64,000 nucleotides of DNA, taken from assembly GCF_009184905.1 (NCBI RefSeq), contig NZ_WESC01000010.1:1-64000 (forward strand), in the 5' to 3' direction. Origin of the DNA: Parvibaculum sedimenti. GTDB taxonomy: Bacteria; Pseudomonadota; Alphaproteobacteria; Parvibaculales; Parvibaculaceae. Within the stretch, counting starts at the first letter, position 1, and every line of letters starts with the position of its first letter. A program made the position numbers and the translations under genes. The notes beneath the pieces are model-generated. The model ran no database searches. It saw only the letters and a program-made list of their open reading frames with translations, and was not told the origin of the DNA. Shown one piece after another: positions 8,365-13,663 of the stretch.

Positions 8365-10062
8365 TCAGGGCGTGTCGCGAAACTCATATGCGGCGGCAAC
8401 ACGATTTCGCCCTTCGCTCTTGGCGCGTTGCAGCGCCTCGTCGGCGGCCTTGAGCACCTTTTCCGGCGTGTCGCCATGTTCCGGATAGGTCGCCGCGCCG
8501 AACGACATGGTCACCGCCGCGATAGTCGTTCCGTCGCACGACACAGACAAATCCCGAATGAGCTCACCCAGCCGCTCGGCCCGCTCGACCGCACTCTCCA
8601 GAGGAGCATCGGGCAACAGAAGCGTGAATTCCTCGCCACCATAGCGGCAGGCCGTATCCCCCTTGCGAATATGCGTATTGAGTATCCGGGCGATGGCCTG
8701 CAGAACCTTGTCGCCGCAGTCATGCCCGTAGGTGTCGTTGACGTTCTTGAAGTGATCGATATCCGTCATCACCACCGATACGGTCTTGCCGGAGCGGGCG
8801 GCGCGCGAGAACTCGCGTTCCAGCGCCTGATCCAGATAGCGCCGGTTGTAAAGCGACGTGAGCGGATCATGCAAAGCCTCGGCCTGAAGCACGTCACGCA
8901 GGGCTTGCTCGGCGCGATTGCGCACCGTCACATCATTGAAGACCCAGTAGACGAGGTTCTCCTCGACGGTGATCACGACCTCCATGTCCCGCACGATACT
9001 GTCACCGCATGAGACCTGCACCTCCCGCACGGGCGAGGCGTCCATTTCGCCGGAGCGCAAAAGTTCAATGTCCCTGACATGCTGAGCCATGACCTCCGCA
9101 CGGTACTTCGTGTCGGGGTAAACGAGTGCGCTCCAGGTCTCGAGGTTCTCCATCCGCTCCGCCGGATAGTGGAGCAGTTCCTCAAACCGCCGGTTGGTGA
9201 AGGTAATAGCATCGTGCTCATCGGTCAGGAGCACCCCGAACGGAGCGTTCTCGACCATGCGCCGAAATCGCTCTTCGCTATGGCGCAAAGCCTGCTCAGC
9301 GCGCTTTCGCGCGGTGACGTCCCAGTACACGCCGATGATGCCGCCGACACTTCCATCGCCCTTGTTGAAGGTCGCCTTATGAAAGATCACATTGCGATTC
9401 GATCCATCGGCCGCGCGCATGAACGCCTCATAGACCTGAACGCCGCCCTTCTTCAGCAGTGCGTCGTCGGCGGAGCGATAGGTCCGGGCGAGTTCCATGG
9501 GCCAGACTTCGAACACCGTCTTGCCAATCACGTCCTGCCGCTTCAGGCCGCAAAATTCTTCAAAAGCGCGGTTGCACGCCAGATAAACTCCGTCCTTGTC
9601 CTTGACGAAGATCGGGCTCGGCACCGTCTCGATCAGTTGCTCTGAAAATTGAAGGTGATCCTTTAATTCCTGCTCGGCGCGCACCCTGTCGGTGACGTCC
9701 CAACCGACACCTACAATTCCGCCGGGGCTGCCGTCCTCCTGGAAAAAGGCGGCGCGATGAAGGATCACCTGATGGCGGCTGCCGTCGGCAAATATTGCCT
9801 CGGCGGCCTGGACATGCGGCCCCGGCTTTTCCAGCACTTCGATATCCCCGGCCTGATAGGTGTCGGCCAGGTCCTTGGGCCATATCTCATGGGCCGTCTT
9901 GCCGAGCAGAGCACCTCGACTTAACCCACAAGAGGCTTCGAACGCCGCATTGCATCCGAGGAAACGCCCTTCCGTGTCCACATAGTAGATCGGGCTGGGA
10001 ATCGCCTCGATAAGCTGCGCGACCAGCGTGGAGTCAGGCAGGCCTGTTTGCGTGTCAGCCAC
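8365..10062 (-). CDS. diguanylate cyclase with three PAS domains
   Basis: Putative c-di-GMP synthase of 565 residues with no membrane helix. PAS1 (LVAQLIEAIPSPIYYVDTEGRFLG) and PAS2 (LIETVPSPIFVKDKDGVYLA) are close duplicates, each ending in a PAC segment (GGIVGVGWDVTDR, GGIIGVYWDVTAR). A third PAS starts at MVENAPFGVLLTDEHDAI. The GGDEF domain has HDPLTSLYNRRYLDQAL, DIDHFKNVNDTYGHDCGD and the active-site loop YGGEEF, so catalysis is expected. The GTG start at 10062 has GAGGAGAGG before it. The input is presumably redox, light or a small ligand, but no heme or flavin-specific residues were identified. It is convergent with the MocR gene. Confidence 0.92.
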   Translation of the reverse strand: MADTQTGLPDSTLVAQLIEAIPSPIYYVDTEGRFLGCNAAFEASCGLSRGALLGKTAHEIWPKDLADTYQAGDIEVLEKPGPHVQAAEAIFADGSRHQVILHRAAFFQEDGSPGGIVGVGWDVTDRVRAEQELKDHLQFSEQLIETVPSPIFVKDKDGVYLACNRAFEEFCGLKRQDVIGKTVFEVWPMELARTYRSADDALLKKGGVQVYEAFMRAADGSNRNVIFHKATFNKGDGSVGGIIGVYWDVTARKRAEQALRHSEERFRRMVENAPFGVLLTDEHDAITFTNRRFEELLHYPAERMENLETWSALVYPDTKYRAEVMAQHVRDIELLRSGEMDASPVREVQVSCGDSIVRDMEVVITVEENLVYWVFNDVTVRNRAEQALRDVLQAEALHDPLTSLYNRRYLDQALEREFSRAARSGKTVSVVMTDIDHFKNVNDTYGHDCGDKVLQAIARILNTHIRKGDTACRYGGEEFTLLLPDAPLESAVERAERLGELIRDLSVSCDGTTIAAVTMSFGAATYPEHGDTPEKVLKAADEALQRAKSEGRNRVAAAYEFRDTP

Positions 10063-10551
10063 AGCCTCTCCTCAAGCATCGTTACGGCACCCTGTCCCGG
10101 GCTTTCATCAGCTTCAGCGTTCCGCCCCTACAAAGGCAACAAGAATTCATCCCTGTGTGAAAGGGATATAGGTTTGTGCACGGACAATGTTTCACTGCGG
10201 AAACCTGGGGAGATACCCCTCGTCGAAGGCAAGGGGACAGCTGGCTGACCTGAGCGCGTACCTCATTTACGCAAATAACCATGTCAGCAACATTGCCACA
10301 TAATAGGTGTATTCCCCCTAACCAAGCTGCCGGATTTGAAGACGAATACCTGTCGACAGCTACATCTACGTCAGAGGCCGCAAGAAAACTGATGCTTTCA
10401 CTTTGAGATACACCTAGGCGTATTCGTATTATTCCGTATTTTATAACCGTTATTTTATTTTACCATGTGAGCCAATCGAAGTTCCCGTGCGTATATGCCC
10501 ACGATGAGCAGAACATGCTTTGCCTGAAGGCAGAAAGGGACCGGTAAACAA
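10063..10551. other. intergenic region upstream of the TetR array
   Basis: About 490 bases without a supported gene. The part next to the GGDEF gene has no recognisable structure. From about 10300 the DNA becomes AT-rich and contains a TAGGTGTATTC half-site at 10304-10314, then the promoter with its palindrome at 10403-10432, and an AT-rich run to 10465. Short frames on both strands here look fortuitous. Confidence 0.6.
10403..10432 (+). promoter_or_regulatory. promoter with embedded operator for TetR array
   Basis: TTGAGA (10403-10408), an 18-base spacer and TATTAT (10427-10432) form a good sigma-70 promoter. The spacer contains the 16-bp near-palindrome ATACACCTAGGCGTAT (10408-10423, one mismatched pair). 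Its half TAGGTGTA recurs at 10304-10311 within TAGGTGTATTC, about 100 bases upstream. A repressor bound at the palindrome would cover the space between -35 and -10, so autoregulation by one or more of the following TetR proteins is the simplest reading. Confidence 0.6.
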
Positions 10552-11160
10552 TTGGGGCTCGAAGAATACCGCCGATCAGTAAGTGAAAATAAGCACGCCG
10601 CGATACTGAAGGCCGGCCGAAAGCACTTCCTCGAACACGGCTACAGTGGCGCAGCGGCGGCCGACATCGCGCGCGAAGCTGATGTGTCAACAGCCACGCT
10701 CTACAAACATTTTTCATCGAAGGAAGAGCTTTTCGTCGCCGTGGTGAAAGACGCCGACCACGAAGAGGAGATTCCTCCGTTTCCGGACAATGCGAGTCTC
10801 GAAGACACCATGGTAGCGGTCCTCAACAACTATCTCATCACACACTTCGAGAAGAATGCGACAGCACTTCTGCGTATTGTCATCGCGGAGGTGCCCGGCG
10901 CACCGGATCTGGCGCGCGACACCTTCAATGAATTCATCGTCTCCCGATACCAGAAATTGGCGGATATCGTGGACCAATTGATCGCACACGGAACGCTCAA
11001 GCCACATGACAGCCACTTCGGCGTGCGGCTCCTCATCGGCGCGATAAAAGAACATTATATCTGGCCCGCGCTCTTCGATAACAAAACCACGATGCCGGAA
11101 CATGCCGAGGACGTCATTCGACAGGTGGTGAAGGATTACCTCCGTCTCTACGGCACATGA
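10552..11160 (+). CDS. TetR-family regulator, tandem copy 1
   Basis: Dimeric DNA-binding repressor type, 202 residues. The HTH (residues 14-60) reads AAILKAGRKHFLEHGYSGAAAADIAREADVSTATLYKHF. The ligand domain is close in sequence to the three genes that follow, including LLRIVIAEVPGAPDLAR and LKPHDSHFGVRLLIGAIKEHYIWPALF. It starts with TTG at 10552, 11 bases after AGAAAGGGA, giving MGLEEYRRSVS, which aligns exactly with copies 2 and 3. It is the first gene after a promoter that contains a palindrome. The inducer is unknown. Confidence 0.9.
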   Translation: MGLEEYRRSVSENKHAAILKAGRKHFLEHGYSGAAAADIAREADVSTATLYKHFSSKEELFVAVVKDADHEEEIPPFPDNASLEDTMVAVLNNYLITHFEKNATALLRIVIAEVPGAPDLARDTFNEFIVSRYQKLADIVDQLIAHGTLKPHDSHFGVRLLIGAIKEHYIWPALFDNKTTMPEHAEDVIRQVVKDYLRLYGT

Positions 11161-11195
11161 GAGACAGAAGCGAAGCGCGACAGGGGTGAGAGAAA

Positions 11196-11822
11196 ATGGG
11201 GCTTGAAAACTACCGACGCAGCGTCAGCGCATCGAAGCACGCCTCCATCCTCAGAGCGGGCCGCGACGTATTTCTGCGCGACGGCTATTCGCGCGCTTCA
11301 GTGTCCGACATTGCGCGCGATGCCGAGGTTTCAACGGCGACGCTCTACAAGCACTTCAGATCGAAGGAGGAGCTTTTCGATGCCGTTCTGAAGGAAGCCT
11401 ATGTCACGATTGAATATGAGGACATGGCGGAAGACGAGAACGTCGAAGACGTCATCGTCGCCTATTGCATGCGTTCCTTGAGGACGCAGTTTGAGCGGCG
11501 CACCAGCGCGCTTCTACGTGTCGTCATTGCCGAAGTCGCGACCGCGCCCGAGCGGGCGCGCCATCTCTACGAGAACTTTATCACGCCACGCCACATCGCC
11601 AGTACGCAGGCGCTCGACGAACTCATTGCCCGCGGAAAGCTGAAGCCGCATGACACGCATTACGGCGCGTGCTTCCTCGGGGGCGTTATGAAGGAATATT
11701 TCATATGGCCTACCCTTTTTGAGGCTAATATGACGCTGCCTGACAATGCCGAAACCGTCGTAAGGCAAGCGGTCAAAGTCTATCTCGAACTCTACGGGAC
11801 ATGCCCCTCCGACAAGAACTAA
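11196..11822 (+). CDS. TetR-family regulator, tandem copy 2
   Basis: Paralogue of the preceding gene, 208 residues, starting MGLENYRRSVSASKHASIL at an ATG. The recognition helix region VSTATLYKHFRSKEELF is the same as in the other copies except for one variable residue after HF. The C-terminal domain keeps LLRVVIAEVATAPERAR and LKPHDTHYGACFLGGVMKEYFIWPTLF. It lies 35 bases after copy 1 and 9 bases before copy 3, so an operon is likely. It has a short extra C-terminal tail (CPSDKN). Near-identical recognition helices suggest the copies bind the same or overlapping operators and may form heterodimers. Confidence 0.9.
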   Translation: MGLENYRRSVSASKHASILRAGRDVFLRDGYSRASVSDIARDAEVSTATLYKHFRSKEELFDAVLKEAYVTIEYEDMAEDENVEDVIVAYCMRSLRTQFERRTSALLRVVIAEVATAPERARHLYENFITPRHIASTQALDELIARGKLKPHDTHYGACFLGGVMKEYFIWPTLFEANMTLPDNAETVVRQAVKVYLELYGTCPSDKN

Positions 11823-11831
11823 GAGGAAATC

Positions 11832-12446
11832 TTGGGACTCGAAGACTACAGACGCAATGTCAGTGAAGCCAAGCACGCTTCCATCCTGCAGGCCGGGCGC
11901 GCCGTGTTCCTGCGCGACGGCTTTTCGCGCGCGGCGGTCGCCGAGATCGCGCGCGACGCGGACGTCTCCACCGCCACGCTCTACAAGCACTTCGCGTCGA
12001 AGGAAGACCTGTTCGCAGCCATCATCATGGATGCAATAACGCAGGTCGAAGACCTTTCCGATCTGGAAGGAACGGAGACGGCGCTCGCCGACATTCTGCT
12101 GACGATCGGCCGAACCTACCTCACGAACCAGTTCGAGCGCGGCGCCAACGACCTGATGCGCATCGTGATCGCGGAAACGACGACCAGCCCGGCCCTCGCC
12201 GCCGAAACCCTTCATCTGCTGACCGAGCGCCGGCGGCAACGTCTGGTGGCGCTGTTCGACCGGTGCGTCGAACGCGGGATCATGAAGCCGAACAACACGG
12301 ACCTCAGCGCCCAGCTTCTTTCCGGCATGATCAAGGAACTCTTCGTCTGGCCTGCGATCTTCGACACGAGTTTCACGCTGCCTTCCGACACGGAAGACAA
12401 GATTCGCACAATCATTCAGGTTTTCCTCGCGCGCTACGCCGCATGA
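11832..12446 (+). CDS. TetR-family regulator, tandem copy 3
   Basis: Third paralogue, 204 residues, beginning MGLEDYRRNVSEAKHASILQAGR at a TTG codon with AGAGGA upstream. Its HTH again contains VSTATLYKHF. The ligand domain has drifted more than copies 1 and 2: LMRIVIAETTTSPALAA replaces LLR-IAEV-AP-LAR, and MKPNNTDLSAQLLSGMIKELFVWPAIF replaces the KPHDT segment. This pattern, a fixed DNA-binding head and a diverging sensor, suggests duplication followed by specialisation for a different ligand. Confidence 0.9.
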   Translation: MGLEDYRRNVSEAKHASILQAGRAVFLRDGFSRAAVAEIARDADVSTATLYKHFASKEDLFAAIIMDAITQVEDLSDLEGTETALADILLTIGRTYLTNQFERGANDLMRIVIAETTTSPALAAETLHLLTERRRQRLVALFDRCVERGIMKPNNTDLSAQLLSGMIKELFVWPAIFDTSFTLPSDTEDKIRTIIQVFLARYAA

Positions 12447-12484
12447 TCGCGACGCCAGAGGATCAGGCCCTTCACGAGGACAAG

Positions 12485-13099
12485 ATGACGTTCGACCCCC
12501 AAAAGCAGACCGCCAGCGACCCCAAGCGCGACGGCATTATCAAAGCGGCGCAGGCCCTGTTTCTGCGCGACGGCTTTTCCAAAGCCATAATGGCGGACGT
12601 CGCGCGGGACGCGGATGTCTCGACGGCCACGCTCTACAAGCATTTCGAGTCGAAGGAAGAACTGTTCGCCGCCGTGGTGAGGCACACCGCGGCTTCGGTG
12701 CAGGACGATTTCGGGACAATGGCGCCCGCAACCACCGCGCGCGAATTCTTCTTCCAGGCGCTGTCCAGCGCCCATTCCGTCCATCAGCAGGCCCAGGTCA
12801 CCGCGCTCCTGCGCGTTGCCATCGCGGAGGTATCGGCCGCGCCCGAGCTGGCGCGCTACGTCTTCGACACCGTGGTCGTCGGCCGCTATGCGCGCCTGCA
12901 GGCGGCCCTCGACGAAATGGTCCGGCGCGGACTGCTGAAGCCTCACGACACCGCCTTCGGCGCGCGCATCGGCATCGGCATGATCAAGGAGCTTTTCGTC
13001 TGGCCCGCCCTCTTCGTCGCGGATTTCGAGCTTCCCGTCGATGCGCTCGACCGGGCCGACGAAGCGATCAATATCTATCTGGCCGCCTACGGGGCCTGA
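12485..13099 (+). CDS. TetR-family regulator, tandem copy 4
   Basis: Fourth paralogue, 204 residues with the ATG at 12485, which has GAGGA 7 bases upstream. An in-frame ATG at 12443 overlaps the stop of copy 3 (ATGA) and would add 14 residues. It lacks the MGLE-YRR leader and begins MTFDPQKQTASDPKRDGI, but the HTH (ADVARDADVSTATLYKHFESKEELF) and C-terminal blocks LLRVAIAEVSAAPELAR and LKPHDTAFGARIGIGMIKELFVWPALF are clearly related. It is probably cotranscribed with copies 1-3. No structural target gene follows in the same direction, so targets are elsewhere or only the array itself. Confidence 0.88.
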   Translation: MTFDPQKQTASDPKRDGIIKAAQALFLRDGFSKAIMADVARDADVSTATLYKHFESKEELFAAVVRHTAASVQDDFGTMAPATTAREFFFQALSSAHSVHQQAQVTALLRVAIAEVSAAPELARYVFDTVVVGRYARLQAALDEMVRRGLLKPHDTAFGARIGIGMIKELFVWPALFVADFELPVDALDRADEAINIYLAAYGA

Positions 13100-13120
13100 G
13101 CGGCTCGTCCTCGCGGCGCA

Positions 13121-13663
13121 TCACCGCAGTTTAGCGGACACAGGCGCGTGAGCCGGCGTGACCGCAAGCGCGTGAGCGAGCGCGTCGGGCCGATCGAGGT
13201 CGGCAATCAGCACACGCTCCCCCGACAGCATTTTGATCTCAAGCGCACCGCCGCCGAAGAGCCGCTGCGGCAGCGAACGGCGGATCCTGATCGACGCAAT
13301 CTCCCGCGCGCCGACGCGCAACGAGCGCGGCCGGGCAAAGCCGTCGCGCAGCACCAGTTCGCGCTCCGCCGCCGCCTGTGTGCCTTCCCGGCCCCTGGGC
13401 CATATCTCGACCGACAGAAGCCGCGCGCGCAGCGCAGCCGCGAAAGCGAGCACCGGCGTCCCGAGCGCCACCACGGCGAGCGCCAGAGCGCGCAGCCCCG
13501 CAAGCGGCGGCTCGTGAAGTGCCGCCCAGGCGAAGACGGCCAGCCAGACCAGCGCCACGACCAGCGCGGGAAAATAAATGGTCCAGTGGGCGCCCGCGCT
13601 GGCGAGCGGCCCGGAAGCGCCGGATGGAGGGAGATCGGGAGCGGACGGCCTGTTCATGTGCAT
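13121..13663 (-). CDS. membrane protein with bacterial PH-like domain
   Basis: Protein of 180 residues with two predicted membrane helices (about residues 28-50 and 55-80, WTIYFPALVVALVWLAVFAW and LRALALAVVALGTPVLAFAA) followed by a cytoplasmic beta-rich domain: LLSVEIWPRGREG, LVLRDGF, REIASIRIRRSLPQRLFGGGALEIKMLSGERVLI. That layout resembles small bPH2/DUF304-type or DUF2244-like proteins, whose function is unknown. It stands alone, convergent with the last TetR gene. The start could be either of two ATG codons two residues apart. Confidence 0.6.
   Translation of the reverse strand: MHMNRPSAPDLPPSGASGPLASAGAHWTIYFPALVVALVWLAVFAWAALHEPPLAGLRALALAVVALGTPVLAFAAALRARLLSVEIWPRGREGTQAAAERELVLRDGFARPRSLRVGAREIASIRIRRSLPQRLFGGGALEIKMLSGERVLIADLDRPDALAHALAVTPAHAPVSAKLR

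What the first reader, a model, noticed from the sequence alone, without database searches (positions are those of the whole stretch)
10403..13099. Four tandem TetR paralogues behind a promoter with an operator-like palindrome
Four consecutive TetR genes of 202-208 residues share almost identical recognition helices (VSTATLYKHF-SKE-LF) but increasingly different ligand domains. The promoter before the first gene has a near-palindrome between -35 and -10, and a half-site lies 100 bases upstream. No structural gene follows. This suggests an expanded sensor array in which several ligand-binding repressors compete for one operator, possibly as heterodimers, a logic I do not know to be described. 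Established: TetR dimers commonly autoregulate. Inference: shared operator and heterodimers.
Basis: partly seen in the sequence, partly recalled or inferred. Interest (0 to 1): 0.75.

Follow-up and report, generated by a model that had tools for sequence, protein, structure and literature searches.

The report
Expanded TetR operon with conserved palindrome
A Parvibaculum-type bacterium carries four related TetR sensor-repressors in one operon, where its relatives carry one or two; they probably control their own promoter through a short palindrome that a related five-gene array also carries, but sharing of one DNA site by several TetR paralogues, even as mixed pairs, is already known elsewhere.

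Summary
Four intact TetR genes (AefR-like, PF14246) lie head to tail at 10552-13099 behind one sigma-70-like promoter with a 7-of-8-pair palindrome between -35 and -10. The palindrome alone is unremarkable (156 of 1000 shuffles equal it). Comparison makes it credible: a window-derived 14-bp pattern (up to 2 mismatches) occurs 7 times in the 4.4 Mb of related genome G015, and one site, a perfect 16-bp palindrome, lies 217-230 bp upstream of G015's five-gene TetR array. The array is a lineage-specific expansion of a TetR locus found in 38 of 40 family genomes: one or two copies in the others read, mostly behind a class GN sortase that the window's genome lacks. The DNA-binding domain is more conserved than the ligand domain, but between-genome homologues show the same ratio and the recognition helix is family-wide, so this is no special evidence for a shared operator. 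Copy 4 has a diverged N-terminal arm. Autoregulation is likely, sharing of the operator by several copies plausible, heterodimers untested. Shared sites and TetR heterodimers are in print (AvaR1/AvaR2, ScbR/ScbR2). An interesting variant, not a new kind.

The parts
10304..10314 (+). Upstream half-site TAGGTGTATTC. In the MAFFT alignment of three upstream regions it falls in the same block as TTATACCTAGGTATAA of G015 and TTATTAGGTATA of G020
10403..10432 (+). Sigma-70-like promoter TTGAGA - 18 bp - TATTAT (consensus match only)
   Evidence: 1 found, 1.2 expected
10408..10423 (.). Operator-like palindrome ATACACCTAGGCGTAT, 7 of 8 pairs; no other site with 2 or fewer mismatches to this 16-mer in the genome (the shorter, degenerate 14-mer TACRCCTAGGYGTA has 8 others at 2 mismatches)
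10552..11160 (+). TetR copy 1, 202 aa, TTG start; AlphaFold2 model pLDDT 90
11196..11822 (+). TetR copy 2, 208 aa
11832..12446 (+). TetR copy 3, 204 aa, TTG start
12443..13099 (+). TetR copy 4, 218 aa from 12443 (ATGA overlap with copy 3) or 204 aa from 12485; diverged N-terminal arm
8365..10062 (-). Divergent PAS-GGDEF gene sharing the 489-bp intergenic region; also in G020 (84% identity), absent from the G015 locus; possible but unproved second target

Best explanation
The feature is one operon of four AefR-like TetR repressors, made by tandem amplification (one copy to two, then to four or five) of a TetR locus found across the family. Shown: the genes, their order, the copy numbers in relatives, the tree, the palindrome and its counterpart at the G015 array. 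Inferred: the genes are one transcript, and the products repress their own promoter by binding the CCTAGG-centred palindrome between -35 and -10, so a ligand releases repression of the whole sensor set. At least copies 1-3, which keep the family's N-terminal arm and recognition helix, probably bind the same kind of site, while the fast-diverging ligand pockets sense different small hydrophobic or aromatic compounds. The regulated effector genes are elsewhere or, in this genome, possibly the divergent GGDEF gene. Heterodimers are possible but not needed.
For: One promoter-like site and gene gaps of 35, 9 and -4 (or 38) bp. A window-derived pattern TACRCCTAGGYGTA with up to 2 mismatches has 7 sites in G015's 4.4 Mb; one, a perfect 16-bp palindrome, lies 217-230 bp upstream of the five-gene array. 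Over 481,677 bp of the 40 fetched stretches it has a single hit, the same one. CCTAGG occurs 4 times in 10,584 bp upstream of the first TetR of 36 loci but only 16 times in 501,677 bp of all these stretches, about 0.3 expected; one of the four is the window's own, and intergenic DNA is not a fair sample of the whole. The G020 promoter keeps 5 of 6 outer pairs at the aligned place (ACACACCTTCGTGTAT). TAGGYRTATWC occurs 7 times in the genome, twice in this promoter. In the 15 two-copy promoters analysed (of 19 two-copy genomes) CGTA/TACG occurs 47 times against 17.4 expected, with a distal and a proximal CGTA 80-92 bp apart in 14 of 15. Copies 3 and 4 pair with G015 copies 3 and 4 on starred branches, so most of the array predates that split. 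Nearest solved structures after 3bhq are FrrA with flavonoids, MexL, AefR (3cdl) and NalC.
Against: The palindrome alone is ordinary (156 of 1000 shuffles). The promoter hexamers are at chance frequency. In G015 the -35/-10 palindrome is absent and the perfect palindrome sits in the upstream block instead. G020 has lost the CCTAGG core, and its array runs off the contig. The degenerate 14-mer has 8 other sites at 2 mismatches in the window's genome. The 15 sortase-type two-copy promoters carry CGTA elements but no such palindrome, and these genomes are related, so their counts are not independent. The G000 copy 4 branch is long, so its pairing in the tree is less sure. No binding, expression or ligand data exist.
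Confidence: 0.6

Rival explanations
1. Each paralogue has drifted to its own regulon elsewhere in the genome; the operon is only co-expressed, and only one copy (probably copy 1) binds the palindrome.
For: Copy 4 has lost the conserved N-terminal arm. Ligand domains are only 29-46% identical. The 16-bp palindrome has no second site within 2 mismatches, so other targets would need other sites.
Against: Residues 45-54 of the recognition helix are identical in all four copies.
Confidence: 0.25
2. The paralogues form heterodimers on one operator and integrate several ligands combinatorially.
For: Same operon and shared recognition helix; precedent in AvaR1/AvaR2 and ScbR/ScbR2.
Against: No direct evidence. 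The C-terminal helices that usually form the TetR dimer interface (a recalled generality) are 52% (a8) and 39% (a9) identical within the array, no more than the 55% and 39% seen between genomes.
Confidence: 0.15
3. The TetR locus regulates the neighbouring class GN sortase system; in genomes that lost the sortase the TetR genes are leftovers that drift and duplicate.
For: 29 of 40 family genomes have the sortase (TIGR03784), in all 29 within about 1.1 kb of a TetR of this family; the window's genome and G015 lack it.
Against: Other neighbours are also kept: of the 41 stretches, gene cluster 1 is found in 27, 2 (sortase target) in 27, 4 (sortase) in 24, 3 in 24, 5 in 22, 8 in 15. The sortase-target upstream regions show no shared CGTA or CCTAGG element by eye. 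Four intact genes here and five in G015 are not decaying leftovers.
Confidence: 0.12
4. The palindrome is a chance feature and the array is an unremarkable tandem duplication without autoregulation.
For: Palindrome P about 0.16 by shuffling; promoter hexamers at chance frequency; the palindrome's place in the promoter is not kept in G015.
Against: One of 7 pattern sites in G015's genome lies upstream of its array; two of 7 half-sites in the window's genome lie in this one promoter; CCTAGG is over-represented upstream of these TetR genes.
Confidence: 0.15

Closest known systems
AvaR1/AvaR2 (Streptomyces avermitilis) and ScbR/ScbR2 (Streptomyces coelicolor)
   Same: TetR paralogues that share DNA sites and form heterodimers (passages of PMC5744401 and of the review PMC6667686)
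   Different: Streptomyces autoregulator receptors with known targets; here four or five tandem copies in one operon, of the AefR-like C-terminal class, with no known target and no binding data
AefR (Pseudomonas; PF14246)
   Same: C-terminal domain family above cut-off in all four copies; best PDB sequence match of copy 2 is 3cdl
   Different: AefR of P. fluorescens is titled a flavonoid-sensing regulator that represses MexEF-OprN (title and start of abstract; a search of that text for four operator-related terms gave nothing). The fold match to 3cdl has 22-23% identity, and I saw no efflux operon beside the array
FrrA, MexL and NalC
   Same: Among the nearest folds after 3bhq, TM about 0.7-0.8; FrrA structures hold flavonoids
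   Different: Sequence identity 22-26%; no efflux operon seen beside the array

Membership tests
TetR/AcrR family | N-terminal TetR_N HTH (PF00440) and an all-helical C-terminal domain | tested here: met
   51.7-60.4 bits against cut-off 24; nine-helix model of copy 1, pLDDT 90, TetR folds as best matches
AefR-like subgroup (PF14246 TetR_C_7) | C-terminal domain above the Pfam gathering score | tested here: met
   61.1-77.3 bits against cut-off 22 (PF16859 also reaches its cut-off of 32 in copies 2 and 3, but scores much lower)
A named NCBIfam TetR equivalog (AcrR, RutR, BetI, ScbR and others) | Score above the family's curated cut-off | tested here: not met
   every listed hit of the four proteins is below its cut-off, e.g. 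ScbR_bind_reg 55.7 against 150
Shared-operator, heterodimerising TetR paralogues (AvaR1/AvaR2 type) | Paralogues bind one DNA site | not testable with these tools
   only indirect: identical recognition helix and one 16-bp palindrome in the genome
Shared-operator, heterodimerising TetR paralogues (AvaR1/AvaR2 type) | Heterodimer formation | not testable with these tools
   no complex prediction or binding assay available
Shared-operator, heterodimerising TetR paralogues (AvaR1/AvaR2 type) | Operator-like site conserved with the array | tested here: inconclusive
   same-core palindrome upstream of both complete expanded arrays, at different places in the promoter; most of the arms but not the core in G020

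The most novel reading that the evidence does not exclude
A single self-repressing promoter feeds four or five TetR sensors with different ligand pockets that compete for, or heterodimerise on, the same operator, so that the sensor pool works as a multi-input gate over scattered targets; the number of inputs changes between species by tandem duplication.
Probability: 0.15. Interest if true: 0.65.

Novelty: new variant of a known kind. Interest (0 to 1): 0.4.

Why it matters
If the paralogues do share one operator, the family offers a natural series with one, two, four and five copies in the same genomic slot, in which to test how duplicated repressors keep DNA specificity while their ligand pockets diverge, and whether paralogue interference is exploited or avoided. 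The two-copy promoters with paired CGTA elements 80-92 bp apart are a second testable lead.

Tried and rejected
Rejected: HTH/ligand-domain contrast as evidence for a shared operator, because between-genome pairs at matched ligand-domain identity show the same HTH identity. Rejected: recent duplication of the whole array, because copies 3 and 4 have counterparts in G015. Weak: the sortase operon as target through the same motif, since the sortase-target upstream regions printed show no common CGTA or CCTAGG element by eye. Open rather than rejected: a regulon marked by the palindrome. Of the 15 sites with at most 1 mismatch to TAYRCCTAGGYRTA in 40 genomes, two are the arrays of G000 and G015; of the other 13, eight fall inside an ORF picked by a mechanical script (some of these ORFs are doubtful) and five lie between ORFs or at an ORF's edge (L149, L158, L159, L162, L163; three of these are in G003); I did not follow them. 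Of the five other TAGGYRTATWC sites in the window's genome three were read: two are inside ORFs, one (L183) is intergenic; two were not read. Not useful: broad paper searches, mostly prefix matches to unrelated words. I saw no paper on a Parvibaculum TetR array among the titles and abstract starts listed (20 of 77), nor on tandem TetR arrays (20 of 107; 4 of 4; 8 of 8, including PMC7670052, which holds the words 'three TetR family' and was not opened); that is not proof of absence. One search (class GN sortase) listed 2 papers, not read; (FrrA) listed 8 of 37, not read. The genome-contig scan used STATLYKH as one of its two search words, so the recognition helix of those distant hits is biased and was not counted.
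Full report
OBSERVATION. The window lies in a 3.7 Mb genome (G000) of a Parvibaculum-type alphaproteobacterium. The name is inferred from titles of related records: of the 51 loci, 17 are titled Parvibaculum and 2 Parvibaculaceae. Four TetR genes lie head to tail at 10552-11160, 11196-11822, 11832-12446 and 12443/12485-13099. All four match TetR_N and TetR_C_7, the AefR-like C-terminal domain, above cut-off. The single sigma-70-like site found in 10060-13300 spans 10403-10432 (1.2 expected by chance), and the near-palindrome ATACACCTAGGCGTAT lies between its hexamers, sharing one base with the first. A second half-site lies at 10304-10314. The next gene is convergent. The genome has 42 TetR_N matches in all, and this is its only run of four.

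HTH VERSUS LIGAND DOMAIN. In the array HTH identity is 65-78% and ligand-domain identity 29-46%. The contrast is not special. Among 62 family proteins over 150 aa, 37 within-genome pairs average 72.3/39.2% and 1,854 between-genome pairs 71.7/41.2%; at matched ligand-domain identity the HTH means agree within 3 points in the five bands that hold both kinds (the number 62). Residues 45-54 are 100% identical in the array and 99% on average between genomes. So the recognition helix is a family trait, and a shared operator is plausible by descent, not by array-specific constraint. The N-terminal arm (MGLExYRRxVS) is kept in copies 1-3 but lost in copy 4 (15% identity to G015 copy 4 over residues 1-13, against 77-92% for copies 1-3).

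ORIGIN. In a search of 40 family genomes, 38 have a close member; G002 (83% complete) and G026 (93%) have only distant ones. In the fetched loci the copy number is five in G015, four here, two in 18 loci (in one, L073, the first gene is cut by the contig end), and one in 14 loci (L076 lies close to a contig end). G010 has two, split over two contigs, and G020 is cut off within its first gene. G004 has a further, unlinked copy (L092). The neighbourhood is syntenic: MocR-like gene, GST, sortase target (TIGR03788), class GN sortase (TIGR03784), TetR, methyltransferase, DUF2244-like gene, UvrB (the names MocR, GST, DUF2244 and UvrB are recalled from the sequences, not from a call). The sortase is present in 29 of 40 genomes, in all 29 within about 1.1 kb of the TetR. 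It is absent here, where a divergent PAS-GGDEF gene stands instead, as in G020. In the tree of 63 proteins G000 copies 1 and 2 group with G015 copies 1 and 2 and the G020 gene (100/98), G000 copy 3 with G015 copy 3 (99/99) and copy 4 with G015 copy 4 (98/94). G015 copy 5 is unplaced, copies 1 and 2 are not resolved one to one, and G000 copy 4 and G015 copy 5 are on long branches, which the tool flags. Same-position identities are 55-60%, while four flanking genes have 71.5-97%, so the TetR genes evolve fast but stay intact.

OPERATOR. The palindrome alone is not significant: 156 of 1000 dinucleotide shuffles of the 489-bp region reach 7 of 8 pairs; the perfect G015 one is reached in 8 of 1000 shuffles of its 300 bp. 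The 16-mer has no other site within 2 mismatches in the genome; sites at 3 mismatches are no commoner than for the reversed pattern. From the window's two half-sites I wrote TACRCCTAGGYGTA. With up to 2 mismatches it has 9 sites in G000, 7 in G015 and 4 in the 57%-complete G020; the reversed control has 65, 70 and 40, so the motif is rare by composition and this control is a poor yardstick. One of G015's 7 sites is TTATACCTAGGTATAA, a perfect 16-bp palindrome 217-230 bp upstream of its first TetR. My own arithmetic puts the chance of one of 7 sites falling in a given 490 bp of 4.4 Mb at about 0.0008. In 481,677 bp of the 40 fetched stretches the pattern has this one hit only. The bare hexamer CCTAGG occurs 16 times in 501,677 bp (these stretches plus 20 kb of the window) and 4 of these lie in 10,584 bp upstream of the first TetR of 36 loci: the window, G015, G030 (L072) and G039 (L097); about 0.3 would be expected, but the window's is the discovery site and coding DNA dominates the total. 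A wider pattern (TAYRCCTAGGYRTA, which already includes the G015 letters and so is partly circular) has 15 sites with at most 1 mismatch in 40 genomes; of three exact sites two are these arrays and one lies inside a doubtful ORF of G021. The alignment of G000, G015 and G020 puts the G015 palindrome in the same block as the window's upstream half-site, not in the -35/-10 block; in the latter G020 keeps 5 of 6 outer pairs and G015 has none. So the element is kept, its place is not.

TWO-COPY PROMOTERS. I analysed 15 promoters of the 19 two-copy genomes, leaving out three sortase-less loci (L059, L060, L077) and one cut at a contig edge (L073). They lack the CCTAGG palindrome, but CGTA/TACG occurs 47 times in 15 x 200 bp against 17.4 in shuffles, and 14 of 15 (not L074) have a CGTA at -138 to -162 and another at -57 to -70, 80-92 bp apart. 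These genomes are related, so counts are not independent. Upstream regions of the sortase target show no such element by eye.

STRUCTURE. The model of copy 1 (17-row alignment) has pLDDT 90.1. The nearest solved folds are 3bhq, FrrA with naringenin or genistein, MexL, AefR (3cdl) and NalC. This makes hydrophobic or aromatic ligands a reasonable guess, no more.

KNOWN LOGIC. AvaR1 and AvaR2 compete for the same sites and form heterodimers by competitive gel shift and pull-down (passages of PMC5744401). ScbR and ScbR2 are reported to share sites and to form a heterodimer with a target of its own (passages of PMC5744401 and PMC6667686; the original papers were not opened). What is less usual, as far as my searches go, is four or five tandem paralogues in one operon with no linked target, varying between species.

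VERDICT. A real, old, lineage-specific expansion; autoregulation through the palindrome likely (0.6); sharing by at least copies 1-3 plausible; heterodimers speculative (0.15).

Noticed in passing
L093:5886-6254 (G028), L094:5537-5929 (G030), L095:6224-6661 (G029): Short proteins (123-146 aa) with a TetR HTH but no recognised ligand domain in Pfam. That of L093 resembles the array HTH (63% over residues 2-66 of copy 2) and sits, by eye, among prophage-like genes; the other two lie in mobile-looking DNA. They could act as decoys or as phage-borne regulators of the same operator.
   Followed up: partly
Family-wide locus, e.g. L080 (TIGR03788 and TIGR03784 genes): A class GN sortase stands directly upstream of the TetR gene(s) in 29 of 40 Parvibaculaceae-type genomes and is missing from the window's genome.
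   Followed up: partly
upstream of tetR in 15 two-copy loci, e.g. L065, L078: Paired CGTA elements 80-92 bp apart in 14 of 15 promoters, a spacing that would suit looping or two operators.
   Followed up: partly
L058 and L096, upstream of the first TetR: GTCAG-N5-CTGAC inverted repeat just before the TAGGTATA element in G015 and G020, degenerate in the window.
   Followed up: no
L072 (G030) and L097 (G039), 191 and 34 bp upstream of the single TetR gene: CCTAGG cores (TTTTTACCTAGGATATTT and ATTTGCCCTAGGGGGCAT) upstream of single-copy homologues in other genera; they may be diverged relatives of the same operator.
   Followed up: no
L158, L162, L163 (G003), L159 (G010), L149 (G039): Near-palindromes of the TAYRCCTAGGYRTA type between ORFs or at an ORF's edge, far from the arrays; possible regulon members, not examined.
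   Followed up: no
first TetR gene of most loci: TTG is the likely start codon of the first TetR gene in 24 of 36 loci examined (2 of the 36 got no start codon), perhaps to keep repressor synthesis low; the starts were chosen by alignment, not by experiment.
   Followed up: no
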